Below are positions 43,531-64,000 of a DNA stretch of 64,000 bases, piece after piece. Source of the stretch: a virus. Made by a program: the position numbers and the translations under genes. Where the stretch lies: positions 62,001-126,000 of the IMG/VR virus record IMGVR_UViG_3300025141_000020; one strand, given 5' to 3'. The stretch's first letter is position 1. The number at the start of each line of letters is the position of its first letter. Below the pieces are notes generated by a model. It saw nothing but the letters and a program-made list of their open reading frames with translations, made no database searches and was not told where the DNA came from.

Positions 43531-44535
43531 ATGGGGTTTTTTACTAAGATTGATTATAATAGACAGTTAAGACAAAGTGGTGGTACAGCTACTTTTTCTG
43601 GTAGTACACATATGACAAATGATTTGTCTTTCGTGGGTCACTTATCAGGTTATGTAGCTGATTGGCAAAGTACTTTAGTTGCTGGTTCTGGATTTCCATG
43701 TTCTACTGGGAATACTTTTATTGTTGGTCCTCATGATGCTACATCTGCTTCATGTAATGTAAATATAACTTCTTTTTCTGGGGTAAGTGGTACAACCGCG
43801 GTACTATCAATAGGTCAGGTACCGATTGACCCTATAAGTGGTGGTTCCGTAAATCCAGGTATTAGTGCTAGTACTTTACAAATTAAAAACACTGGCCTTA
43901 TGGATGCTGTTGGTAGTTATAGTGATTTGTCTATTGATACGTCTGGTAATGTTGTTAAGGGTGGTAGTTCATCACTAAGATACAAAACTAATTTGGTACC
44001 TGTAGAGTCAGGTAGATATATGGGATTACTTAAGTTGAGTTCATATAGCTTTAACTACAAATCAAGTGGCATACCTAGTTTTGGTCTTATAGCTGAAGAA
44101 TTACACTCTCTTGGTTATGATGAATTAGTAATGTATGACGAAAATAGGAGGCCAGATAACATACATTATAAATTGTTGTCGGTAGCTCTTTTACAACTCA
44201 TAAAAGATATAAGAAAAGATATGTATAGTGGTGATATTGGCGTCAATATACCAGAAAAAAATACATTAACTAAGGTGGTTACAGAAGATTATACAACTAA
44301 TGGTGAATACCTACTAGTGAGTACGTCTGACTCAACTATAACTCTAAATTCTGCTGTTGGTACTAAAGTAAGGATAAAATCCTTATCTAATACTAGTGTG
44401 GTTCCTGATATAGGTCTTATTGATAGTAGGTGGGAAAATGTAGAATTAGATAATAATAGTTCTGTAGAATTTGTGTTTGTGTCGGAGTTAAACTACTGGG
44501 TAATTGTTAGTTCAGACGGAATTAAGGATTCCTAA
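43531..44535 (+). CDS. Fibre-like protein with intramolecular chaperone (S74) domain
   Basis: A 334-residue protein. Residues 1-145 are Ser/Gly/Thr-rich beta sequence as in tail or neck fibres. Residues about 146-230 match the S74 endosialidase chaperone: SSSLRYKTNLVPV, then SFGLIAEELHSLGYDELV and IHYKLLSVALLQLIKDI. Such domains trimerise fibres and usually cleave themselves off at the Ser before LRYK. Here about 100 further residues follow it (GDIGVNIPEKNTLTKVVTED onward), so release would also remove that domain. It is adjacent to the neck gene, suggesting a collar or whisker-like fibre. Its end overlaps the convergent polymerase gene by 24 nt. Confidence 0.78.
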   Translation: MGFFTKIDYNRQLRQSGGTATFSGSTHMTNDLSFVGHLSGYVADWQSTLVAGSGFPCSTGNTFIVGPHDATSASCNVNITSFSGVSGTTAVLSIGQVPIDPISGGSVNPGISASTLQIKNTGLMDAVGSYSDLSIDTSGNVVKGGSSSLRYKTNLVPVESGRYMGLLKLSSYSFNYKSSGIPSFGLIAEELHSLGYDELVMYDENRRPDNIHYKLLSVALLQLIKDIRKDMYSGDIGVNIPEKNTLTKVVTEDYTTNGEYLLVSTSDSTITLNSAVGTKVRIKSLSNTSVVPDIGLIDSRWENVELDNNSSVEFVFVSELNYWVIVSSDGIKDS

Positions 44536-50790: not shown

Positions 50791-50804
50791 TATTTATAAT
50801 AAAA
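50791..50804 (+). promoter_or_regulatory. AT-rich late-type element, divergent pair member
   Basis: Reads TATTTATAATAAAA, 5 nt before the ATG that opens the five-gene cluster. Confidence 0.55.
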
Positions 50805-53557: not shown

Positions 53558-53589
53558 TTTGACTATTTAATTATTTCGTGTTATTATTT
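53558..53589 (+). promoter_or_regulatory. Host-type promoter for glycan locus
   Basis: TTTGACT, 17 nt, TATTATTT. The -35/-33 box and spacing equal those of the SSB and SNF2 promoters; the -10 box fits sigma-70 TATAAT in five of six positions. It ends 7 nt before the ATG, giving a nearly leaderless message. Confidence 0.65.
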
Positions 53590-53593
53590 TAAC

Positions 53594-54829
53594 ATGACAA
53601 ATAAAAAATATAAAATCTGTGTATTACCTTCGGATAGGACGGGAGTTTCTAAATTTCGTTCGGTAGACCCACACATATACTTACAAAAAATGTACCCAGA
53701 CGAATTCTGGGTGGATATAATATATGACCCACCATATCAAGATGATAGCTTTTGGAAACAGTTTGACTTAGTACATTATCATAGGAGTGTTGGACCTAAT
53801 CACGAATTAGCCAAAATGGTACAAAGAAAATTAACTAAGTGGGGAATTCCGCATATAATGGATTTGGATGATTATTGGTTGCCCACTTCTGACCATCCAG
53901 CTTATATGATGATTAAAGAAAGTAATTTACATAAGCATATAATGGACAACCTTAAGTTAGCTGGTCATGTAACTACCACCACTCCAGATTTTGTTACTGA
54001 GATTAAAAAGTTTAATAATAATGTATCCATATACCCCAATGGTATTGACCACAAAGAAAAGCAGTACGTTCCTAAACCCACTATTTCTGATAAAATTAGA
54101 GTTGGTTGGTTAGGTGGTTCTTCACATATAAGGGATTTGGAAATTTTAAATGGTGTTTTTGGTAGGCTTCATAGTGAACGAGCTGAGTCATTTCAAACAG
54201 TACTATGTGGTTATGATTTACGAGGGACTATGACTGAAATGGATAAAGTTACTGGAAAACAAAAACAAAGACCTATTTTACCAATTGAGTCTGTCTGGTA
54301 TAAATATGAACAGATATTCACCAACAACCACCAAAACCTATCTGAGGATTATAAGAAAGAACTAATGGAATTTAAAAAGAAATCTATAACTGGTGATTTG
54401 GATTCTGTTTATAGGAGGGTTTGGACTAAGCCTATAACGACCTACGCTTCCAACTATAACTACTTTGATGTTAGTTTGGCTCCCTTAAAAGAACATATTT
54501 TTAATAAGGTTAAGTCTCAGTTAAAGGTTATTGAGTCTGGATTTCATAAAAAAGCTTTAATCGCACAAGATTTTGGTCCTTACCAGATAGATTGTGTTAA
54601 CTTATTTGAGCGTGGTGGTAAATTAAACCCAAAAGGTAATTGTTTATTGGTTGATACAAATAAAAATCATAAGTTGTGGTATAAGTACATAAAGTACCTC
54701 ATAGATAATCCTAACGCGGTCACGGACTTAGGTGAAAAATTATACGAAACCGTGTATCCAAAATACTCACTAGAAAAAATTACAGAAACTAGAGCGGAGT
54801 TTTATAGGGAGTTAATAAAAAAATCATAA
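53594..54829 (+). CDS. Glycosyltransferase, GT-B fold (GT4-like)
   Basis: A 411-residue enzyme that would transfer a sugar from a nucleotide donor. The N-terminal Rossmann half includes VDIIYDPPYQDD, FDLVHYHRSVG and MDLDDYWLP; the linker SIYPNGID opens the C-terminal half with VGWLGGSSHIRDLEILN. The late segment LKVIESGFHKKALIAQDFGP is the GT4 donor-site helix, though the usual E-x7-E is degraded. It starts the plus-strand glycan locus under its own promoter. Acceptor unknown. Confidence 0.8.
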   Translation: MTNKKYKICVLPSDRTGVSKFRSVDPHIYLQKMYPDEFWVDIIYDPPYQDDSFWKQFDLVHYHRSVGPNHELAKMVQRKLTKWGIPHIMDLDDYWLPTSDHPAYMMIKESNLHKHIMDNLKLAGHVTTTTPDFVTEIKKFNNNVSIYPNGIDHKEKQYVPKPTISDKIRVGWLGGSSHIRDLEILNGVFGRLHSERAESFQTVLCGYDLRGTMTEMDKVTGKQKQRPILPIESVWYKYEQIFTNNHQNLSEDYKKELMEFKKKSITGDLDSVYRRVWTKPITTYASNYNYFDVSLAPLKEHIFNKVKSQLKVIESGFHKKALIAQDFGPYQIDCVNLFERGGKLNPKGNCLLVDTNKNHKLWYKYIKYLIDNPNAVTDLGEKLYETVYPKYSLEKITETRAEFYRELIKKS

Positions 54830-54845
54830 ATAAAAAAATCATAAA
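54816..54845 (+). repeat. Tandem 15-bp duplication at gene end
   Basis: TAAAAAAATCATAAA is present twice in tandem, with a partial third copy, spanning the stop codon of the first glycosyltransferase. A slippage-prone A-tract repeat; additional copies would not alter the protein because the stop lies in the first unit. Confidence 0.8.
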
Positions 54846-54854
54846 TAAAAAAAA

Positions 54855-55034
54855 ATGGCAGTAGAAATTAATATAATAGAGAATGGACCTATATTGGTCA
54901 AAGGAGAAACTACCGTAACAAAAGGTGGTGAAGAAGTAGTAGTTAGTGAAAATTATGCGTTGTGTAGATGTGGTCAATCCAAGAATCAACCAATGTGTGA
55001 TGGAGCACATAAATCATGTAATTTTAAAGGATAA
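54855..55034 (+). CDS. CDGSH-type iron-sulfur protein
   Basis: A 59-residue protein with a complete CDGSH signature, C37-R-C39-x2-S42-x3-P46-x-C48-D-G-A-H52, the mitoNEET-type site for a redox-active 2Fe-2S cluster held by three Cys and one His. The first 30 residues form the beta strands of the small barrel (INIIENGPILVKGETTVTKG). Bacterial single-CDGSH proteins of this size exist; their role in electron transfer or iron-sulfur handling is poorly known. It lies between the first glycosyltransferase and a DUF4494-like gene. CDGSH genes are rare in phages. Confidence 0.9.
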   Translation: MAVEINIIENGPILVKGETTVTKGGEEVVVSENYALCRCGQSKNQPMCDGAHKSCNFKG

Positions 55035-55038
55035 AAAT

Positions 55039-55272
55039 ATGTATTATCAAGCAATCGTTGCATTCGAAACCGGAGTTATGGATAACGAAGGAAATGCTAA
55101 AGTTAAAAAATTTAAATATATTGTAGAAGCAGAATCTCTTTTTGAGGTTAATAAAAGGTTGGCGTCATATCTATCGGAAGATACGAGAGATTCAGAAATT
55201 GTGTCAATTGTTAAAGCTCCTTTTGAGGATTTTTTACATCCTCAATTAACCCCTAAGTATTATAATCTTTAA
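55039..55272 (+). CDS. DUF4494-like small protein
   Basis: A 77-residue protein using the ATG at 55039 (MYYQAIVAFETG), 4 nt after the CDGSH stop; a longer frame starting within that gene is rejected. The pattern YQAIVAFETGVMDNEG, then KVKKFKYIVEAESLFEVNKR resembles DUF4494 proteins of Bacteroidota, small proteins of unknown function. The resemblance is by eye. Confidence 0.65.
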   Translation: MYYQAIVAFETGVMDNEGNAKVKKFKYIVEAESLFEVNKRLASYLSEDTRDSEIVSIVKAPFEDFLHPQLTPKYYNL

Positions 55273-55273
55273 T

Positions 55274-55855
55274 ATGAGTTTAAAAAAAGCGTCAACACCG
55301 TCTAATAAGTTTAATAATGAAGAAGCTATGTTTCGTCAATTAGGGATAGATGACGATATGATTAAAAAACTAGAAGAGGCGAGTTTAGATGCTGCCCGAG
55401 AAAAAGTTAAAATTAGTGTTAGGTATGTAAATACTAGCGATAATAGCGACCTTTCTTACAAGTATATTGATGATAGTGGGATGGACCTCCGAGCTAATTT
55501 AACAAATAGTTTAGTTATTAACCCAGGTGAAAGAATTTTAATTCCGACGGGGATTCATTTTGAACTACCTGAAAGTATGGAAATTCAAGTAAGACCTAGG
55601 TCTGGTTTAGCTATAAAAAATGGTATAACTGTCCTTAACACCCCAGGAACTGTAGATAGGGGTTATAATGGTGAAATTAAAGTTATTTTAATAAATTTAA
55701 GTAACGAAAAATTTACAGTAAATCATGGTGATAGAGTTGCTCAAGCTGTCATTTCTCCAGTCATATCTGGTAGGTGGTCAAAAATAATAAAAGTCGACTC
55801 GTTAAATGACTCTAGTAGAGGTGACGGTGGATTTGGTAGTACTGGAATAAATTAA
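55274..55855 (+). CDS. dut: dUTPase
   Basis: A 193-residue trimeric-type dUTP diphosphatase that keeps uracil out of DNA and supplies dUMP. All five motifs are present: DSGMDLRANL, RPRSGLA, NTPGTVDRGYNGEIKV, GDRVAQAVI and the C-terminal RGDGGFGSTG. A 45-residue helical N-terminal extension (EEAMFRQLGIDDDMIKKLEE) precedes the usual domain. It stands 1 nt after the DUF4494-like gene, as an island of nucleotide metabolism inside a glycan locus. Confidence 0.95.
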   Translation: MSLKKASTPSNKFNNEEAMFRQLGIDDDMIKKLEEASLDAAREKVKISVRYVNTSDNSDLSYKYIDDSGMDLRANLTNSLVINPGERILIPTGIHFELPESMEIQVRPRSGLAIKNGITVLNTPGTVDRGYNGEIKVILINLSNEKFTVNHGDRVAQAVISPVISGRWSKIIKVDSLNDSSRGDGGFGSTGIN

Positions 55856-55857
55856 TT

Positions 55858-57498
55858 ATGTCATTAACAGTTGTATTTAGTACAAAAAAAATAAACTTAG
55901 ATTTTGTAGAAATAATAAAGGCAACATCTGGTGTTCATAACATAGAGATACTTCCTTATGAAAACCCTGGAAAATACTCATTAACTGAAGTTTATAATAT
56001 GGGTATTAAAAAAGCTAAAAACGATATTATAATTTTTTGTCATGATGATATAAAGTTTGATACAAAAAACTGGGGTAGAAAAATATTAAAATTGTTTAAA
56101 AGGCATTCAGAATTTGGTATTATTGGTGTCGCTGGTAGTAGGTATATGCCTGAATCTGGTAAATGGTGGGAGGATTTCTCTAAAATGCATGGAGCGGTAT
56201 ACCATGAACACGAAGGAAAAAGATGGTTGTCCAGGTATTCCAACGATATAGGAAATTATTTAGATGAGGTTATTTTAGTAGACGGGTTATTTTTTGGTGT
56301 TCATAAAGATAGAATTTCACACCAATTTAATGAAGAGGTTGATGGATTTCATTTTTATGATGTTGACTTTTCTTTTTCTAATCATTTGTCTGGGACTAGA
56401 GTTGGTGTGTGTACAAATATAAAAATTACTCACTTGTCTATTGGGCAAACCAATTCTGAGTGGGAAGAAAATAGAATTATATTTGCGGAAAGATATAAGG
56501 ATTCTTTACCCTTAAAAATAAATCGTACCTTACGAAAGAACGAAAAACTAAACATACTCATTGGTTGCTTAAACTTTAATGATTATACTGGTTCTGAACT
56601 ACATGTATATGAGTTAGCTAAAGGTTTAAAAAAGTTGGGTCATAACATTACTATATGTTCTAATGTTGGTGGTGACATGAAAAATAAAGTTAACTCTTTA
56701 GGTATTCAGACTTTCCCTCTTAACGAACCACCAGGATTTAAATTAGGTGATGGGAAAACTAAGATTAATACTCCTGAAGGTGTTAAAATTCCTGCAGAGG
56801 GTCAACTATACCAAATAGAACCAATAAAATTTGACCTTATGCATCTACATCATAAGCCTATAACAGAACACTTATTAAAACTATACCCAACCACACCAAC
56901 TGTATGTACTATACATTCCGAAGTTATTGATTTAGAACACCCAGTAATAGATGGTAGGATTAAAAAATATATTTGTATACGACCAGAAATACAAAAATTT
57001 ATAACTGAGGACTTTGGTATTGCGGTAGATAAGACCAACGTAATTTATAATCCTTTTGATGTTGATAGATTTAAAACGTATCCTAAGCCAAAAACTGATA
57101 AAGAGAGGGTTTTGTTTATTGGTACGATAGATTACTTACGTCAAGAAGCTATAGAAGATTTAATAAATAAAACCAGGGAGGCTAATCAAGAACTATGGAT
57201 TGTAGGTAAAAAAAGGGAAGATTTTTTAGATGATTTAGATTTACCTCACCTTAAGTATTTTGACCCTACTTGGGATGTTGAGTCCTATATTAAACAGTGT
57301 CATTATACGGCAGGGATATTATTAGGTAGGACCACCATTGAGGGTTGGTTGTGTGGTAGAGAAGGGTGGATTTACGATGTTGATTCTAGTGGTAACATTA
57401 ATGGAGTTACTTTGAATGGGGTTCCTTCTGATATGGATAAATTTCACTCTAATAATGTTATGGATAAGATATTAACCACTTACGAAGAAATATTATAG
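55858..57498 (+). CDS. Bifunctional glycosyltransferase (GT2-like + GT-B domain)
   Basis: A 546-residue two-domain enzyme. Residues 1-215 are GT-A like: YNMGIKKAKNDIIIFCHDDI supplies the metal-binding HDDI. FGIIGVAGSRYMPESGKWWE and VDGLFFGVHKDRI follow the pattern of GT2 enzymes. Residues about 225-546 are GT-B like: LIGCLNFNDYTGSELHVYEL, then CTIHSEV, NVIYNPFDVDRFK and VLFIGTIDYLRQE. Fusion of two transferases suggests successive sugar additions to one glycan. The donor and acceptor cannot be read. Confidence 0.82.
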   Translation: MSLTVVFSTKKINLDFVEIIKATSGVHNIEILPYENPGKYSLTEVYNMGIKKAKNDIIIFCHDDIKFDTKNWGRKILKLFKRHSEFGIIGVAGSRYMPESGKWWEDFSKMHGAVYHEHEGKRWLSRYSNDIGNYLDEVILVDGLFFGVHKDRISHQFNEEVDGFHFYDVDFSFSNHLSGTRVGVCTNIKITHLSIGQTNSEWEENRIIFAERYKDSLPLKINRTLRKNEKLNILIGCLNFNDYTGSELHVYELAKGLKKLGHNITICSNVGGDMKNKVNSLGIQTFPLNEPPGFKLGDGKTKINTPEGVKIPAEGQLYQIEPIKFDLMHLHHKPITEHLLKLYPTTPTVCTIHSEVIDLEHPVIDGRIKKYICIRPEIQKFITEDFGIAVDKTNVIYNPFDVDRFKTYPKPKTDKERVLFIGTIDYLRQEAIEDLINKTREANQELWIVGKKREDFLDDLDLPHLKYFDPTWDVESYIKQCHYTAGILLGRTTIEGWLCGREGWIYDVDSSGNINGVTLNGVPSDMDKFHSNNVMDKILTTYEEIL

Positions 57499-57499
57499 T

Positions 57500-58159
57500 A
57501 TGAAATTATTAATTAAATTTCCAACTAGAGTAAGGTCTAGAAAATTTTTAAAGGTGTTAAGTAAGTATGTGCGATTACTGGACGACAAAACAACCCAAAT
57601 AATAGTATCTTGTGATGATGACGACATTTCTATGAAAGAAGAGTTTGTTACCGAGGTAATTAGTCAATACGATAATGTTGAGGTTCAGTTTAACAATAAT
57701 TCTAATAAAATAGAAGCTATAAATCATAATATGGAAAACTTGGATTTTGATGTGGTTTTACTAGCTTCTGATGATATGGTTCCTAGGGTTAAAGGGTTTG
57801 ATACAATTATAAGAGAAAAGATGTTATCTCATTATCCAGATACTGATGGTGTATTATGGTTTAATGATGGATATAAAGGAAACGAACTAAATACTTTGTG
57901 TATCTTAGGTAAAAAATATTATGAAAGGTTTGGTTACATATACAGTCCGGAATATAAGTCTGTCTGGTGTGATAATGAGTTTATGGATGTATCAAAGTTA
58001 TTGGATAAGGTAACTTATTTCGATGAGGTTATAATTAGGCATGAACATCCTGACTGGGGGTTTGGTTCTAACGATGCCATACATATGAATAATATTAAAC
58101 ATGAAAGTGCTGATAGACTTACCTACGAAAGAAGAAAACAAAAAAATTTTGGTCTATGA
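57500..58159 (+). CDS. Glycosyltransferase, GT-A fold (GT2-like)
   Basis: A 219-residue GT-A type protein: TTQIIVSCDDDDISM for the nucleotide loop, IEAINHNMENLDFDVVLLAS and DDMVPRVKGFDTIIRE carrying the DD metal site. FGYIYSPEYKSVWCDNEFMD and RHEHPDWGFGSND make up the acceptor side. The protein is compact. It follows the bifunctional enzyme by 1 nt and overlaps the next gene by 4 nt. Confidence 0.78.
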   Translation: MKLLIKFPTRVRSRKFLKVLSKYVRLLDDKTTQIIVSCDDDDISMKEEFVTEVISQYDNVEVQFNNNSNKIEAINHNMENLDFDVVLLASDDMVPRVKGFDTIIREKMLSHYPDTDGVLWFNDGYKGNELNTLCILGKKYYERFGYIYSPEYKSVWCDNEFMDVSKLLDKVTYFDEVIIRHEHPDWGFGSNDAIHMNNIKHESADRLTYERRKQKNFGL

Positions 58160-59016
58160 AACAAATATGTACAGTATCAGACATAAATTATCTCAATAAA
58201 GGATTAACATTATACGAGTCTCTTATTAAAAACACTAATGATTTTATTTTACATTACTTGTGCATAGATGAAGCTACACATAAAAAAATACTACCTTTTG
58301 CATGTTCTTCTTTAAAGGTTTATGACCTTAATGATTTGTTAAGTGGTGATAAGTTTCTAAATGACCTTAAAAGTTCAGAGTATAGTTATTTTTGTTGGTC
58401 CTTGGCTTCCTATTTTAGTAATTTCTTACTTTACGCGATAGATGAGGATATAACTTATATTGATAGTGACATTTATTTCCACAAAAGTTTAGATATTGTT
58501 TTAGATGAAATTGGGTCTAGGGATGTAGGCATTTTTAGACATCGTCAATTTCCTTTAAATTTATATAGACCTGAAGGGTTGTATAATGTTGGCGTTGTAC
58601 ATTTTAAATCAACTGAATTAGGCATTAAAACTTCTGATTGGTGGAAAGAATCGGTTTTGCATAAAAGACACCCAGAGTATGCTACTTGTGGTGACCAAAA
58701 ATATTTAGAGTATTTTCCTATATTATGTGATAAAGATTCAATATATATTGATGATAATGTGGGTCATGGTGCACCATGGCATTGGCAAACATTTGAGTTT
58801 TTAGGTGGTGGTAAAATAAAGTATGGTGGTCAGGAACAGGATTTGGTATTTACTCACTTCTCCCAATTTTCTGATGACGGTGAAACCTACATCCCATCAA
58901 AAATGCACCATATCTACACACCCCTTAAAGAATACTCAAATAACCCACAACTAAAGGCTATTTATGATGAATACCATTTAGAATTAAATAAAACAAAAAA
59001 TAAATATGGTGAATAA
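58156..59016 (+). CDS. Glycosyltransferase, GT8-like
   Basis: A 286-residue GT-A enzyme with the DxD metal motif in TYIDSDIYFHKSLD (about residues 96-109), an early CTVSDINYLNKGLTLYESL loop and the later GDQKYLEYFPILCDK, the pattern of GT8-type transferases (GDQ(D)-x-L/Y). A run NVGHGAPWHWQTFEFLGGGK supplies His residues in place of the usual metal-binding His. It overlaps its neighbours by 4 and 11 nt. Confidence 0.75.
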   Translation: MKQICTVSDINYLNKGLTLYESLIKNTNDFILHYLCIDEATHKKILPFACSSLKVYDLNDLLSGDKFLNDLKSSEYSYFCWSLASYFSNFLLYAIDEDITYIDSDIYFHKSLDIVLDEIGSRDVGIFRHRQFPLNLYRPEGLYNVGVVHFKSTELGIKTSDWWKESVLHKRHPEYATCGDQKYLEYFPILCDKDSIYIDDNVGHGAPWHWQTFEFLGGGKIKYGGQEQDLVFTHFSQFSDDGETYIPSKMHHIYTPLKEYSNNPQLKAIYDEYHLELNKTKNKYGE

Positions 59017-59743
59017 TAAAGTGGTAAAAATACCAGCTCATAAATTAAATCCTCTTCTTGATACCATACATGGTCACACATTTAGAAGTGATTTATTAAC
59101 TAAAGGTGGCTATGTTCTAGACCTAGGTTGTAATGATTTTGTATTTTCTAATTACATGCTTAGTATAGGGATGAAGGTAATCGCGTTAGACCCAATAAAA
59201 GATTTACGTATCCCTAGTAATTTTAAACATCTAGAAAATAACCCAAATTTTACATACCTACAAAGAGCTTGTGTTGGTGTTAAGAATGGCGATACCGCGA
59301 CATATTACGAATATCTCCATTGGGGGGCAAACTCTTTAGTAAATAAACCAGAGATGTTACATAGGAGTACTAATGGTGGTCATGCTAATAACCCCTATAA
59401 GGCATCATATGAAGTTCCCTTAACTACATTAACAGAATTAATGTCAGAATTTAATATACCAAAATTTGAATTTATTAAAATTGATGTTGAGGGCTCTGAA
59501 TATGGTATTCTCTCTACTTTTCCGCATGAATGCACAAAACAATTATCGGTAGAGTTCCACGCTTTTCTAGGTTTAAATCCGTCAGATGATGTTGAGGGTT
59601 ATCATGACGATTTAACTAATAATAAATTATCGTCCTATAGTCTTGAATTTGAGGACAAGGACCTGTTGGATTCTTCTGGTGGTGAGTACGGAGAGGTTTT
59701 TCAAAGAAATGATGTTTTGTATGTATTAAAAAAATATACCTAA
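59006..59743 (+). CDS. FkbM-family methyltransferase
   Basis: A 245-residue SAM-dependent enzyme. The binding loop is YVLDLGCNDFVFSNYMLSIG, the second acidic site VIALDPIKD, and the FkbM signature FEFIKIDVEGSEYGILSTFP is complete. FkbM-type enzymes O-methylate sugars and polyketides; in a glycosyltransferase operon, sugar methylation as a cap or modification is the likely role. It overlaps the previous gene by 11 nt and the next by 1 nt. Confidence 0.88.
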   Translation: MVNNKVVKIPAHKLNPLLDTIHGHTFRSDLLTKGGYVLDLGCNDFVFSNYMLSIGMKVIALDPIKDLRIPSNFKHLENNPNFTYLQRACVGVKNGDTATYYEYLHWGANSLVNKPEMLHRSTNGGHANNPYKASYEVPLTTLTELMSEFNIPKFEFIKIDVEGSEYGILSTFPHECTKQLSVEFHAFLGLNPSDDVEGYHDDLTNNKLSSYSLEFEDKDLLDSSGGEYGEVFQRNDVLYVLKKYT

Positions 59744-60627
59744 TGAAAATAGCGTTTGGAATGATAGTATTTGAAGGAGATTATGTTCTTAAACAATGTT
59801 TGGAACAGGTTTACCCGTTTGCTGAACAAATACTTATTTCTGAGGGACCTGTATCTTATTGGCAAAAGCAGGGTAGGACAACATCTTTAGATAATACTAA
59901 TAAGATTTTATCCGACTTCCCAGACCCAGATAATAAAATTAAAGTTGTGCATGGTCAATTTAATGAAAAAGATGACCAATGTAAGGCGTATATGCAATAT
60001 ATTAATGACGATATAGAGTATATATGGAATTTAGATTCTGATGAAATATATAAAACTGATGATTTAAAAAAAATAATAAGTTTTTTAGAGTCTGAGTCCC
60101 CAACTAGTGTTGGTGTTAGGAGTTGTTCTTTTTATGGTGGTTTTGATGATTATTTAACTGGTTTCGAATTAAATAGGGATAATTTTCTAAGAATATTTAG
60201 GTATGTTAAGGGTTCTACTTGGTTGACCCATAGACCACCCACAATTCAATACCCTGTAGGTTCAAATATTAGTAAACATCACATAGATAGTGAAACCCTT
60301 TATAATAAATTAGGGGTACAAATGTATCACTACTCATATACCTTCCCTGACCAAGTTTATAAAAAAGTTAATTACTATAAAGATAGTGTTAGTAAAGATA
60401 ATTGTATTGATGATTATTTTAATAGGGTTTATCTTCCGTGGGTTAATGGAGATAGAACTCGTATTGAAAAACAGTTTCTAGGGGTTCACGAATTTAAACC
60501 TCATTCAAGAGGAGAATGTTTTACATCTCCCTTTATTTTATCACACCCCGAATCTATAATTAATGATATGGAGGAATTAAAAAATAAATTTAAAAAACAA
60601 CTAAAAAAATATAAATATGTTAAGTAA
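59743..60627 (+). CDS. Glycosyltransferase, GT2-like
   Basis: A 294-residue GT-A enzyme: FGMIVFEGDYVLKQCLEQVY, then IEYIWNLDSDEIYKTDDLKK, with a DSDE metal site. The C-terminal half contains RVKGST-like RYVKGSTWLTHRPPTIQYPV and closes in a Lys-rich helix (ELKNKFKKQLKKYKYVK) that could touch acidic membrane lipid. Overlaps the next gene by 11 nt. Confidence 0.8.
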   Translation: MKIAFGMIVFEGDYVLKQCLEQVYPFAEQILISEGPVSYWQKQGRTTSLDNTNKILSDFPDPDNKIKVVHGQFNEKDDQCKAYMQYINDDIEYIWNLDSDEIYKTDDLKKIISFLESESPTSVGVRSCSFYGGFDDYLTGFELNRDNFLRIFRYVKGSTWLTHRPPTIQYPVGSNISKHHIDSETLYNKLGVQMYHYSYTFPDQVYKKVNYYKDSVSKDNCIDDYFNRVYLPWVNGDRTRIEKQFLGVHEFKPHSRGECFTSPFILSHPESIINDMEELKNKFKKQLKKYKYVK

Positions 60628-61429
60628 TGAAGAGGGTAATAATTTTATAAAGGAAAAGATTTTATCTGGTGAACCATTTATAGCTAGTAAGATGGGTGGT
60701 GTTGAGCAAAATGTAATTTTATGTAATATGAATGGTAACTATCATCATATACGTGAAATGGCTTCAACTAATGCAGGAATAACACCAGCTGACGATAACA
60801 CATTAAATTACTTCTGTGAACGATATATTGATGCGTTGGGTAAGGTTGACATATTAGGTCACATGCCATCACCACAAGAGAAACATATACTATCAACATA
60901 TGCCCCACAATCTAAATTTTCAGAGTTAAGGTTGTTAGAACCTTTTTATTTTGATAATCCTTGGAGTGAAACATTAAAAGGTAAAAAAGTGTTAGTGATA
61001 CATCCATTTGAAGACACCATATTAAAACAATTTGTTAATAGGGAAAAATTATTTGATAACGAGAAGGTGTTGCCAGATTTTACTTTACTAACCATTAAGT
61101 CTGAACAAACTAATGGTGGTGGTACCGGAAATAATAAACCATTCAAAGAATCTATGGAATTAATGGAAGATAAGATTCTTAAATCTGATTTTGATGTTGC
61201 TATTATTGGTTGTGGTGCTTATGGATTACCGTTAGCCTTAGTTTGTAAAGAGATGGGTAAACAAGCAATTCATATAGGTGGTGGGTTACAAATACTATTT
61301 GGTATTAAAGGTAAACGTTGGGATGTTCACCCGGAAATAAGTGCTATGTACAACGACTATTGGACAAGACCTATGGATAATGAAAAAACAATAAACTTCC
61401 AATCTATAGAGGGTGGTACTTATTGGTAA
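60617..61429 (+). CDS. GT-D-fold glycosyltransferase-like protein (DUF1792-like)
   Basis: A 270-residue protein resembling the GT-D (DUF1792) transferases: an early GEPFIASKMGGVEQNVI, where the family has its RFGDGE-type site, and a late FDVAIIGCGAYGLPLALVCK followed by GKQAIHIGGGLQILFGIKGK that fits the C-terminal core. DUF1792 enzymes extend glycans on bacterial adhesins. The acidic metal motif is weaker here (GG instead of DG), so activity is not certain. Confidence 0.65.
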   Translation: MLSNEEGNNFIKEKILSGEPFIASKMGGVEQNVILCNMNGNYHHIREMASTNAGITPADDNTLNYFCERYIDALGKVDILGHMPSPQEKHILSTYAPQSKFSELRLLEPFYFDNPWSETLKGKKVLVIHPFEDTILKQFVNREKLFDNEKVLPDFTLLTIKSEQTNGGGTGNNKPFKESMELMEDKILKSDFDVAIIGCGAYGLPLALVCKEMGKQAIHIGGGLQILFGIKGKRWDVHPEISAMYNDYWTRPMDNEKTINFQSIEGGTYW

Positions 61430-61441
61430 ATAAATTTTAAT

Positions 61442-62293
61442 ATGAGGAATGTCTTCTTAATAAATGTTAGTGAAAATCCGTTAGTGGTAAAAAATCAAAT
61501 AGATAATATTAAAAAATTTGTATCTAACGATGAGGTTATTGTGCTACACATATCTAATACAACTAAAGATAATTTTATTAACGACTCTAATACCCATAAT
61601 TTAGATTTCTATAATATGGAATCTGATGGTATATATGTAAACCCAACAAATATACCTACTCAACGAGGTCATTTATTGACTGATGCTTTCTTATCTAGTT
61701 TCGATTTTATAAAAGGTAGGGTGGACTTTGGTAAAGTGGTTTTAAACAGCAGTAATCAGTTATTTTTCAAACATGGGTTTAAAGAACATTTAGATAATTA
61801 TAGAGTTGGTTTATATAAAATAGAAACATTGGGTCCGTCTGGAATGTTCCCAAATGCTAAGCCGAAACCATTTATTACTAAAATATTTGGTGAGGAGAGA
61901 AAGAGTTATTGGTCATACCATGAGGGTAGTTTTTTTGATAAGGGTGATTTTGAGACTATTAGTGATTTAATCAAAGACAATAATTTTGACGGAACTAGTG
62001 AGGAACAAACAATACCCACTTTATTCCATAATCTATATAATGATAAAGACCTTAAAATCTCCCCAACATCAGTGTGGATGAATCTTTATTTGTCACTTGA
62101 TGAGATTTCAGCTATGAAACTTATATTAGATTCTGAATATGAGAAATTACGTGGATATGTACGTTACGGTTTAGCTGATAGTACTAACACCCCTCTTAGA
62201 GATGTTATGTTGTCTGGTGATTTTTTATTTGGGATTAAACGGGTTGGTAGGACTATGGATTGTCCAACCAGGTCATTCATTAACGGCTTATGA
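61442..62293 (+). CDS. Possible glycosyltransferase, unknown family
   Basis: A 283-residue protein in the glycan operon. An N-terminal sheet-like part (VFLINVSENPLVVKNQIDNI, then VIVLHISNTT) is followed by TQRGHLLTDAFLSSFDFIKG and FGKVVLNSSNQLFFKHGFKE. This is reminiscent of core-2/I-branching (GT14-type) enzymes, which have a similar N-S-S-N/D-based site, but I cannot confirm it. Stop and the next start are 1 nt apart. Confidence 0.5.
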   Translation: MRNVFLINVSENPLVVKNQIDNIKKFVSNDEVIVLHISNTTKDNFINDSNTHNLDFYNMESDGIYVNPTNIPTQRGHLLTDAFLSSFDFIKGRVDFGKVVLNSSNQLFFKHGFKEHLDNYRVGLYKIETLGPSGMFPNAKPKPFITKIFGEERKSYWSYHEGSFFDKGDFETISDLIKDNNFDGTSEEQTIPTLFHNLYNDKDLKISPTSVWMNLYLSLDEISAMKLILDSEYEKLRGYVRYGLADSTNTPLRDVMLSGDFLFGIKRVGRTMDCPTRSFINGL

Positions 62294-62294
62294 T

Positions 62295-63113
62295 ATGAAT
62301 AGTATATTAGGCTTAAAGGGAAATTCAGGTTGTGAGTTAGCTATTTTAGGAGATACGATTCGAAAGTCTTGCGAACGTAACTATAACGATAGGTTAAAAT
62401 TACAGTGTAAAAAACAAACTGATTTTAATAATGGTATATTTAGTACACCAAAAGTTTATGAATCTGGTATAGACAATCAAGGAAAATTCTTTTTTAATAT
62501 GGAATTCATGCCGTGTAAAACGTTTGATAGGGTATTTAATACTGCAACTAAGGCTTATTTAGATACTATTATAGGAAAACTCTTGGATTTCACAATAGCG
62601 AATACTAAAAAAACAACGGATTTTTCAAGTAAGATAATAACCACCAAATATGAATCAGTAAAAAATAACATAAGGGCACAGAAAAATATTGATGTTAGCT
62701 ATTTAGACGATATTTTTTATTCATTAGATGAAACTATAAACATACCTGAAGGTTATTGTCATGGAGATTTAACATTTTCTAATTTATTATTCGATGGAGA
62801 TAATATAGTTTTGTTAGATTTTTTAGATACCTATCTAGACTCACCAATGCAGGACATTGTAAAAATTAGACAAGATACAAAATATCATTGGTCTATAAGA
62901 ATGTTAGATTGTAAGTTTGATGGAGTAAAATTGACTCAGTGCCTAAATTATATTGATAAAAAAATAGATTATGAGTTCTCAAAAAATGAGTACTATGTAG
63001 AATACTATGCAGTTTTTCAGATTCTAAATTTACTTAGAATAGTACCATACTGTAAAGAAATAAAGAATGTTAATTATTTAATAAATGAAGTAGATAAGTT
63101 ATGTCAACACTAA
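62295..63113 (+). CDS. Choline-kinase/aminoglycoside-phosphotransferase-like kinase
   Basis: A 272-residue kinase-fold protein. I start at the ATG at 62295, 1 nt after the upstream stop; an in-frame start inside that gene is rejected. An APH-type catalytic loop CHGDLTFSNLL (H156, D158, N163) and a DFG-like IVLLDFLD (D175) are clear, and an early GNSGCELAIL with K24 may bind ATP. Substrates of this superfamily are choline, ethanolamine, sugars and small alcohols. Its coupling (13-nt overlap) to a nucleotidyltransferase suggests the kinase makes the phosphate that enzyme activates. Confidence 0.8.
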   Translation: MNSILGLKGNSGCELAILGDTIRKSCERNYNDRLKLQCKKQTDFNNGIFSTPKVYESGIDNQGKFFFNMEFMPCKTFDRVFNTATKAYLDTIIGKLLDFTIANTKKTTDFSSKIITTKYESVKNNIRAQKNIDVSYLDDIFYSLDETINIPEGYCHGDLTFSNLLFDGDNIVLLDFLDTYLDSPMQDIVKIRQDTKYHWSIRMLDCKFDGVKLTQCLNYIDKKIDYEFSKNEYYVEYYAVFQILNLLRIVPYCKEIKNVNYLINEVDKLCQH

Positions 63114-64000
63114 TAATACCATGTGCAGGTAGAAGCACAAGATTCCCTAACTCTAGGCCTAAATGGTCTCTTACCCATCCTTACGGAGACTTAATGTTTA
63201 TTCAGTCGATTAAGGGGTTAGATTTAAGCAAATACTCAGAAATAGTATCAGTTTTTCTAAAAGAAGACATCGAAAAGTTTAATTTATTAGATGGGCTTAA
63301 TCAGTCTCTTGGAGAAATAGACGTGAAAACATCAATAGTTTTACTTGAGGAACCAACATCTAGCCAAAGCGAAACTGTTTCAGAAGCTATAAAGGCATTA
63401 AACCTTAAGGGAGATATCCTAATAAAAGATTGTGACGCATATTTTACAGCTGAATATAGTACTGGAAATTTTGTTTATACTTCAAATCTTAGAGATGTTT
63501 CAAACATCAAAGCAAGTAGTAAGAGTTATGTTGATGTGGATAAGAATGGAATAATACAAACAGTAGTAGAAAAAGATGTAATTAGTAATGAATTTTGCTG
63601 CGGTGGATATGGATTTTCAGACGCAGAAAAGTTTGTACAGACCTATGATAAGCTAAAAGATTCTGCAGAAGGAGAAATTTATATTTCACATATAATTTTT
63701 CAACAACTACTAGATGGAGAACAGTTTATTACTTGTAGTACTTCAAACTTCAATGATTGGGGAACATTAAAGGATTGGAATGAGTATAAAAAACAATATA
63801 AAACTTTATTTTTAGACTTGGATGGTGTATTGGTGGAAAATTCGGGAGAATATATAGGAAAAAGATGGGGCACCACTGATGCTCTAGAATCAAATAAAGA
63901 CTACATAAACAATTTGTATGAAACAGGCAAGGTGAGAATAATATTCACAACTTCTAGAAAGAGTAAATTTAAAGGTGAAACTATTTCACAACTAGAAAAA
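63101..64000 (+). CDS. Sugar/polyol-phosphate nucleotidyltransferase fused to HAD domain, partial
   Basis: The frame is open for 300 codons to the window edge. Residues 1-220 form a nucleotidyltransferase: IIPCAGRSTRFPNSRPKWSL gives the Gly-Arg-Lys signature (with a Ser for the usual Gly) and ILIKDCDAYF the metal-binding D110/D112, followed by FNDWGT near 217. From about residue 234 a HAD phosphatase begins: TLFLDLDGVLVENSGEYIG (D239/D241) and VRIIFTTSRKSKF as motif II. The fusion would prepare and activate a phosphorylated metabolite for transfer. Downstream end unseen. Confidence 0.85.
   Translation, partial: MSTLIIPCAGRSTRFPNSRPKWSLTHPYGDLMFIQSIKGLDLSKYSEIVSVFLKEDIEKFNLLDGLNQSLGEIDVKTSIVLLEEPTSSQSETVSEAIKALNLKGDILIKDCDAYFTAEYSTGNFVYTSNLRDVSNIKASSKSYVDVDKNGIIQTVVEKDVISNEFCCGGYGFSDAEKFVQTYDKLKDSAEGEIYISHIIFQQLLDGEQFITCSTSNFNDWGTLKDWNEYKKQYKTLFLDLDGVLVENSGEYIGKRWGTTDALESNKDYINNLYETGKVRIIFTTSRKSKFKGETISQLEK

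What the first reader, a model, noticed from the sequence alone, without database searches (positions are those of the whole stretch)
53594..64000. Phage-encoded glycan assembly locus
At least six glycosyltransferases of four fold types, an FkbM methyltransferase, a kinase and a nucleotidyltransferase-HAD fusion are packed with 1-13 nt overlaps or gaps under a host-type promoter and extend beyond the window. This is enough to build and modify a multi-sugar chain. It could glycosylate virion proteins, mask or remodel the host surface, or modify DNA. No flippase or polymerase is visible, so attachment to virion proteins or an existing host glycan is favoured.
Basis: partly seen in the sequence, partly recalled or inferred. 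Interest (0 to 1): 0.78.

Follow-up and report, generated by a model that had tools for sequence, protein, structure and literature searches.

The report
Swappable phage sugar-chain gene island
A large, T4-related marine virus of bacteria carries about twenty genes for making and joining unusual sugars, and nearly the whole set is exchanged like a cassette between related viruses while the genes on both sides stay the same, so these viruses probably come in many different 'sugar types'.

Summary
The extension includes sugar-nucleotide genes: GMD, a DegT aminotransferase, an FdtA-type ketoisomerase, methyltransferases and an aldolase/CMP-sugar-synthetase fusion. The first genes listed (GT4, DUF4494, dUTPase, GT2-GT4) are core. 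From 57500 to PhoH lies a hypervariable island: apart from GMD, none of its 16 genes has a homologue in the 14 closest relatives spanning the site, although PhoH next door is ~90% identical. Nine of these genes recur, colinear and at 50-80% identity, at the same PhoH anchor in distant phages whose core genes are only 31-54% identical: cassette exchange between phage lineages. Island genes are under the same purifying selection as their flanks (dN/dS ~0.1), so this is not stuffer DNA. No polytopic membrane protein occurs among 304 island genes. No thymidylate-synthase/dCMP-hydroxymethylase relative was found, which argues against hydroxymethyl-base DNA glycosylation. Best mechanism: a phage-made, methylated, amino-deoxyhexose-containing oligosaccharide with conserved inner and swappable outer part, probably on a virion protein; modifying a host glycan is the close rival. 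Kind known (P-SSM2, pelagimyophages); architecture and exchange are a new variant.

The parts
53559..53587 (+). host-type promoter TTGACT-17-TATTAT of the core GT operon
   Evidence: -35 box and position conserved in the close relatives, also where the upstream gene differs
53594..54829 (+). core glycosyltransferase, GT-B/GT4 type; left anchor of the island
   Evidence: phrog_7162 1e-38; GT-B fold; in 15 of 18 close contigs at 59-71%; homologues in Phapecoctavirus
54946..55272 (+). DUF4494 protein (core gene, not a glycan gene; true start probably near 55039)
   Evidence: Pfam 1.3e-5; 14/14 relatives at 83%
55274..55855 (+). dUTPase (core gene, not a glycan gene)
   Evidence: Pfam 9e-25; 14/14 relatives
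55858..57498 (+). GT2-GT4 fusion, two-domain glycosyltransferase; semi-core
   Evidence: Pfam 2e-31 and 1.3e-11; 7/14 relatives full length, 12/14 genomes by cluster
57500..58159 (+). GT2-like; first gene of the variable island; part of the exchanged cassette
   Evidence: weak Pfam 0.003; 0/14 close relatives; 52-64% in distant phages
58156..59016 (+). GT8-like glycosyltransferase with DSD motif; cassette
   Evidence: Pfam 0.042; up to 63% in distant phages
59006..59743 (+). FkbM methyltransferase; cassette
   Evidence: Pfam 7e-12; 59% in L098
59743..60627 (+). GT2 glycosyltransferase; cassette
   Evidence: Pfam 3e-8; 76-82% in distant phages and in L013
60617..61429 (+). GT-D-like protein; start of the block that interrupts the cassette in this phage
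   Evidence: Pfam GT-D-like 5e-4, below cut-off; gene order
61442..62293 (+). protein of unknown family
   Evidence: no Pfam or PHROG match; no homologue in the fetched loci
62295..63113 (+). APH-type small-molecule kinase (ORF opens at 62202; start judged from homologues)
   Evidence: Pfam 2.7e-8; paired with the next gene in L012 and L014
63101..64000 (+). nucleotidyltransferase-HAD fusion, 5' part; ends at genome 126,159 outside the window
   Evidence: IspD 0.003, HAD 0.003; 47% in AG-345-E15, 41-42% in L014

Best explanation
A PhoH-anchored, cassette-swapped glycan island of a T4-like phage. SHOWN by sequence: conserved glycosyltransferases (53594, 55858, and two GT-like genes beyond PhoH) bracket a 14-24 kb stretch whose sugar-nucleotide, glycosyltransferase and methyltransferase genes are exchanged in blocks between phage lineages, are under purifying selection, and include no polytopic membrane protein. 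INFERRED: in the infected cell the phage draws on host sugar-nucleotide pools, makes rare sugars (GMD to a 6-deoxyhexose; DegT + FdtA to a 3-amino-3,6-dideoxyhexose; HMGL-CTP fusion to a CMP-activated unit; kinase + nucleotidyltransferase/HAD to a further activated unit), and soluble glycosyltransferases assemble them in the cytoplasm on an inner glycan laid down by the conserved enzymes, followed by methylation. The likeliest acceptor is a virion protein, as in chlorovirus PBCV-1; the outer structure changes whenever the cassette is replaced. I put about 0.9 on the exchanged, functional glycan island and about 0.5 on the virion acceptor; the figure given is for the whole statement.
For: Sharp boundaries: 13 consecutive genes from 119,500 and 3 after GMD in 0/14 relatives, between core genes in 14/14; gene sharing 0.27 in the island against 0.87 to the right. 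Exchange: nine-gene cassette colinear in L098 and mostly in L108, L115, L118, L119 at the same anchor, cassette 57-69% against core 40-49%. Selection: dN/dS 0.07-0.15, equal to flanks. No polytopic membrane protein in 304 genes. Empty site MCP-(1-2 genes)-PhoH in immuto and Mel-JY01; core GT directly behind MCP in G009/G012/G013. Sugar-nucleotide enzymes identified; DegT-FdtA pairing in 61/64 loci against 0/59. PBCV-1 precedent for GMD plus soluble GTs plus methyltransferase on a capsid protein (PMC4691112).
Against: No acceptor identified; the core GT has a host-type promoter and not the late-type motif of structural genes, which fits early, host-directed action at least as well. Authors of comparable islands prefer host O-chain modification (PMC7029224). 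Several GT assignments are weak. Bacterial LPS GTs are also cytosolic, so lack of membrane proteins does not exclude use of host lipid carriers.
Confidence: 0.48

Rival explanations
1. Host-surface remodelling: the phage enzymes extend or alter a lipid-linked host glycan on the cytoplasmic face and host flippase and ligase export it. The altered surface blocks superinfection or re-adsorption of progeny, and the island varies because host surface glycans vary.
For: Host-type promoter conserved at the first gene; GT8 and deoxy-sugar genes as in LPS loci; published view for pelagimyophages and P-SSM2.
Against: No initiating phosphoglycosyltransferase, flippase, polymerase or ligase in any of 14 islands; a 14-24 kb gene set is more than a side-branch modification needs (inference).
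Confidence: 0.34
2. DNA hypermodification: the glycosyltransferases decorate modified bases of the phage genome against restriction.
For: T4-related phages do glucosylate DNA (established knowledge); a dUTPase lies in the block.
Against: No thymidylate-synthase/dCMP-hydroxymethylase relative in G000 or seven relatives, controls rang; many different sugar pathways swapped per phage is unlike known DNA glycosylation (inference). TET/JBP not testable.
Confidence: 0.08
3. Non-functional cargo: LPS genes as stuffer DNA for headful packaging, a possibility raised for cyanophages in PMC3037559.
For: Large size and apparently unstructured variability.
Against: dN/dS equal to flanking core genes, intact tightly packed frames, conserved promoter, colinear cassettes.
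Confidence: 0.04
4. Assembly chimera or bacterial DNA rather than a phage locus.
For: Genes resemble O-antigen/capsule genes.
Against: Same anchors, orientation and promoter in 15 further contigs; cassette colinear in other phage contigs; gp55-like sigma factor, PhoH and MCP nearby.
Confidence: 0.02

Closest known systems
Pelagimyophage 'host recognition cluster' (PMC7029224)
   Same: Hypervariable island within the structural region of T4-like marine phages, with several glycosyltransferases and deoxy-sugar genes
   Different: There between VrlC and gp14 and mixed with tail fibres; here between a core GT and PhoH, with no tail fibre recognised, and with demonstrated cassette exchange
LPS gene clusters of cyanophages P-SSM2, S-SSM7, S-SM2 (PMC3037559, PMC2984593)
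   Same: Large LPS-type gene clusters, one of them near phoH in P-SSM2
   Different: Function versus stuffer DNA was left open there; here selection, boundaries and exchange were tested. Homology of the phoH-side cluster was not tested
Chlorovirus PBCV-1 autonomous glycosylation (PMC4691112)
   Same: Viral GMD, glycosyltransferases without predicted transmembrane domains, methyltransferase domain
   Different: Eukaryotic virus, genes not in one cassette; glycan on the capsid protein is proven there, not here
Bacterial O-antigen/capsule loci
   Same: Conserved anchors with exchangeable sugar-nucleotide and glycosyltransferase genes
   Different: No flippase, polymerase, initiating transferase or transporter
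Phapecoctavirus four-GT cluster (Mt1B1_P17 NC_052662, gp102-gp105)
   Same: Homologue of the core GT (25%) within a run of four annotated GTs
   Different: Small cluster near DNA polymerase I; no sugar-nucleotide synthesis genes annotated beside it

Membership tests
Hypervariable sugar islands of T4-like marine phages | T4-like structural genes in the same genome | tested here: met
   gp23-type MCP, gp20-type portal, tail sheath, gp55-like sigma factor
Hypervariable sugar islands of T4-like marine phages | Variable sugar genes between conserved syntenic genes | tested here: met
Hypervariable sugar islands of T4-like marine phages | Same genomic position as the pelagimyophage cluster (VrlC to gp14) | not tested
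   VrlC and gp14 were not located; here the right anchor is PhoH
Bacterial-type O-antigen/capsule locus | Flippase/polymerase, transporter or initiating membrane transferase | tested here: not met
   0 polytopic membrane proteins in 304 island genes of 14 phages
PBCV-1-type virion glycosylation | Virus-encoded sugar-nucleotide synthesis and soluble GTs | tested here: met
PBCV-1-type virion glycosylation | Glycan found on a virion protein | not testable with these tools
   needs virions; this is an analogy of working, not a membership claim
Phage DNA glycosylation | Hydroxymethylated-base synthesis (dCMP-hydroxymethylase family) | tested here: not met
   PF00303 absent from 8 records, 9 control genomes rang; records may be incomplete
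3-amino-3,6-dideoxyhexose pathway (FdtA/QdtA + C-3 aminotransferase) | FdtA-type cupin with its His pair, and an aminotransferase with the Schiff-base lysine | tested here: met
   FdtA 1e-32 with the RGNHSHHKTKQ motif; DegT FSFYPTK motif invariant in three phages; obligate pairing
3-amino-3,6-dideoxyhexose pathway (FdtA/QdtA + C-3 aminotransferase) | Substrate is a dTDP-sugar made by RmlA/RmlB | tested here: inconclusive
   No RmlA/RmlB recognised in the G000 locus, GMD adjacent instead; but most phage pairs lack both GMD and RmlAB motifs, so host supply is likely

The most novel reading that the evidence does not exclude
These phages carry exchangeable virion-glycan serotypes: a fixed promoter, inner-GT and PhoH anchor lets whole glycan cassettes be swapped between phage lineages, as bacteria swap O-antigen loci, with the sugar displayed on the virion. 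As a by-product, the adjacent DegT-FdtA-GMD genes of this phage (and of contig G001, where GMD is one gene further on) could make GDP-3-amino-3,6-dideoxymannose with a GDP-sugar 3,4-ketoisomerase, an enzyme reported as not yet identified (PMC8944477); this second part is less likely (about 0.1), because most phage DegT-FdtA pairs occur without GMD.
Probability: 0.4. Interest if true: 0.78.

Novelty: new variant of a known kind. Interest (0 to 1): 0.55.

Why it matters
It gives quantitative evidence that a large phage glycan island is selected for rather than stuffer DNA, that part of it travels as a colinear cassette between distant phages at a fixed anchor, and that it has no membrane step of its own. 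That makes the open question of what phage 'LPS genes' are for testable: take a cultured phage with the anchor genes and look for the glycan on virions, DNA or host surface.

Tried and rejected
(1) GDP-mycosamine-type pathway as the leading idea: suggested by DegT-FdtA-GMD adjacency and by PMC8944477; demoted because FdtA tracks DegT (61/64) and GMD does not (10/64), and GMD occurs in 11/14 close relatives that lack this pair. (2) Bacterial counterpart of the phage FdtA: only one distant hit, in an Opitutae O-antigen-like locus without a recognisable GMD. (3) TET/JBP search uninformative, control silent. (4) Core-GT structure model only half confident (pLDDT 56), so only its GT-B fold is used. 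(5) Host assignment: nearest cultured relatives are Flavobacterium phage immuto and Microcystis phage Mel-JY01, both distant; Bacteroidota-like signal peptides are a hint only. (6) The sigma-70 consensus scan by itself is at chance level. (7) DUF4494, the right-hand conserved GT-like gene and the cassette GT2 have no match in the phage collection.
Full report
WHAT IS THERE. The window is bases 62,001-126,000 of a 210,568-bp virus record, here G000; genome = window + 62,000. The genes at 53594-64000 are real, co-directional and tightly packed. Pfam supports GT2+GT4 (55858), FkbM (59006), GT2 (59743), APH kinase (62202) and weaker GT2, GT8, GT-D and NTP-transferase/HAD matches; PHROGs calls 53594 a glycosyltransferase at 1e-38. 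Two members of the block are not glycan genes: DUF4494 and a dUTPase. A CDGSH-like small ORF lies in the first gap.

BEYOND THE WINDOW. The operon continues to genome 133,486: end of NTP-HAD (126,159), GT8 (126,172), SAM methyltransferase (126,968), orf250 (127,573; a SAM-methyltransferase fold, CmcI among the matches, model pLDDT 90), DegT aminotransferase (128,322), FdtA-type 3,4-ketoisomerase (129,235), GMD (129,630, E 3e-118), Methyltransf_24 (130,615), orf226 (131,196) and an HMGL-like/CMP-sugar-synthetase fusion (131,879). PhoH follows at 133,510, then two more GT-like genes at 135,140 and 136,203, and a gp55-like late sigma factor at 137,007. The GT reading of 135,140 and 136,203 rests on inspection of the sequence; PHROGs gave no match.

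THE PHAGE. MCP and portal are T4-type; the nearest cultured relatives are Flavobacterium phage immuto and Microcystis phage Mel-JY01, at 37-44%. In both, MCP is followed by two genes and then PhoH, with no sugar island: an empty site. In three relatives (G009, G012, G013) MCP lies directly upstream of the core GT and the island ends at PhoH.

THE ISLAND IS HYPERVARIABLE. PhoH retrieved 62 loci. The core GT is present at 59-71% in 15 of 18 close contigs, in the same orientation as PhoH; the other three have only about 14-21 kb upstream of PhoH on the contig. The distance from core GT to PhoH is 14.0-24.0 kb with 15-28 genes. Gene by gene, GT4, DUF4494 and dUTPase are in 14/14 relatives and PhoH in 14/14 (90%), but 13 consecutive genes from 119,500 and the three genes after GMD have no homologue in any of the 14 at the cut-offs used. 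GMD itself is in 11/14 (79%). Pairwise gene sharing is 0.27 in the island against 0.87 to its right; 304 island genes form 130 clusters, 61 of them singletons. Of 30 pairs with core identity of 70% or more, 22 share under 25% of the island, while groups such as G006/G007/G008 share 90-100%.

CASSETTES MOVE BETWEEN LINEAGES. A scan with the DegT alignment gave 139 viral relatives; the best 80 became loci. Nine genes of this phage (GT2, GT8, FkbM, GT2, GT8, MT, orf250, DegT, FdtA) recur colinearly in L098; eight recur in L108, L115, L118 and L119, and fewer in L102, L107 and L109. In loci with at least four cassette genes and two core genes the cassette averages 57-69% identity and the core (PhoH, flanking GTs, dUTPase) 40-49%. 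The cassette sits upstream of PhoH in most of these too. In G000 it is interrupted by the block GT-D, orf283, APH, NTP-HAD (window 60617 to genome 126,159). The APH + NTP-HAD pair recurs as an overlapping pair in Marine virus AG-345-E15 and in L014. Four distant PhoH loci without the right-hand GT-like genes (L058, L064, L065, L066) also lack sugar-island-like genes.

IT IS UNDER SELECTION. In nine pairs, median dN/dS of shared island genes is 0.07-0.15, the same range as the flanks (0.06-0.16). This speaks against the 'stuffer DNA' possibility that PMC3037559 left open for cyanophage LPS clusters. Divergences are high in some pairs, so the ratios are approximate.

WHERE IT ACTS. A hydropathy scan finds no polytopic membrane protein among 304 island genes; the one bacterial FdtA locus fetched (L096) has genes that read as flippase- and polymerase-like. 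The chemistry is therefore cytosolic, or borrows host export. No thymidylate-synthase/dCMP-hydroxymethylase family member is present in G000 or seven relatives, which argues against hydroxymethyl-base glycosylation; TET/JBP could not be tested.

EXPRESSION. The motif TATTTATA lies upstream of 30 of 96 gap-preceded genes against about 2 expected, mostly 4-18 nt before the start and including structural genes: a candidate late promoter. The core GT lacks it and instead has TTGACT-17-TATTAT, whose -35 box and position are conserved in the relatives, also where the upstream gene is different. The operon just upstream (50810) has the late-type motif and could read through.

PATHWAY. DegT and FdtA form an all but obligate pair: FdtA in 61 of 64 non-redundant DegT loci and in 0 of 59 phage loci without DegT. 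GMD is in only 10 of 64, so the pair probably normally uses a host dTDP-4-keto sugar (inference). In G000 and in contig G001 (L013) the pair lies beside or near GMD, and G000 lacks the fucose-synthase-like gene that follows GMD in most relatives, so a GDP-3-amino sugar remains possible; no GDP-sugar 3,4-ketoisomerase has been identified, according to PMC8944477. The phage DegT is compact (307 aa), with roughly 36 residues fewer than WbpE between two aligned blocks.

EXPLANATION. Conserved GTs outside the island and swappable enzymes inside it fit a glycan with a fixed inner and a variable outer part. PBCV-1 is the closest working model: viral GMD/GMER, GTs without predicted transmembrane domains and a methyltransferase domain, with the glycan on the capsid protein (PMC4691112). 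I put the virion acceptor at about 0.5 and modification of a host glycan, the view in PMC7029224 and PMC2984593, at about a third. Shown: gene content, boundaries, exchange, selection, lack of membrane genes. Inferred: substrates, order of steps, acceptor.

NOVELTY. Sugar islands in T4-like marine phages are known. What I did not find described in the papers read is the anchored architecture in this lineage, the exchange of a colinear cassette, the selection test and the DegT-FdtA pairing. Hence 'new variant of a known kind'. The paper search was limited to open-licence texts.

LIMITS. All close relatives are metagenomic contigs, some of them fragments; the G000 record may be incomplete; several GT calls rest on weak profile matches; ORF calls were mechanical; identity cut-offs can miss remote homologues.

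Noticed in passing
window 54855-55010: Small ORF with a CDGSH-type motif (CRCGQSKNQPMCDGAH), probably a small iron-sulphur protein, between the core GT and DUF4494.
   Followed up: no
whole record, e.g. window 50791-50798: Motif TATTTATA(ATA), usually 4-18 nt before start codons of about 37 genes including structural ones; candidate phage late promoter, different from T4's TATAAATA.
   Followed up: partly
L003:13323-14634 (genome 128,322-129,633): DegT aminotransferase of only 307 aa paired with FdtA: 139 viral relatives, FdtA in 61 of 64 non-redundant loci. A phage family of compact sugar aminotransferases worth its own study.
   Followed up: partly
window 62202-64000; L012:19202-21059; L014:9163-11059: Overlapping kinase + nucleotidyltransferase-HAD gene pair shared by three otherwise different phages: a small portable sugar-activation module of unknown product.
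   Followed up: partly
L003:16880-18487 (genome 131,879-133,486): Fusion of an HMGL-type aldolase and a CMP-sugar synthetase with no full-length relative in the phage collection; product unknown.
   Followed up: no
genome 147,401-149,197 versus G009, G012, G013: MCP lies on the opposite strand and 14 kb beyond PhoH in G000, but directly upstream of the core GT in three relatives: a rearrangement of the structural module.
   Followed up: partly
L012 (Marine virus AG-345-E15, MH319741.1): Another marine virus with a long sugar locus (several SDR-like genes, GHMP-type kinase and nucleotidyltransferases by inspection); the record is unannotated.
   Followed up: no
window 43531-44535: Protein with a weak Peptidase_S74 (endosialidase chaperone) match, possibly a tail-spike-type protein, 9 kb upstream of the locus.
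   Followed up: no
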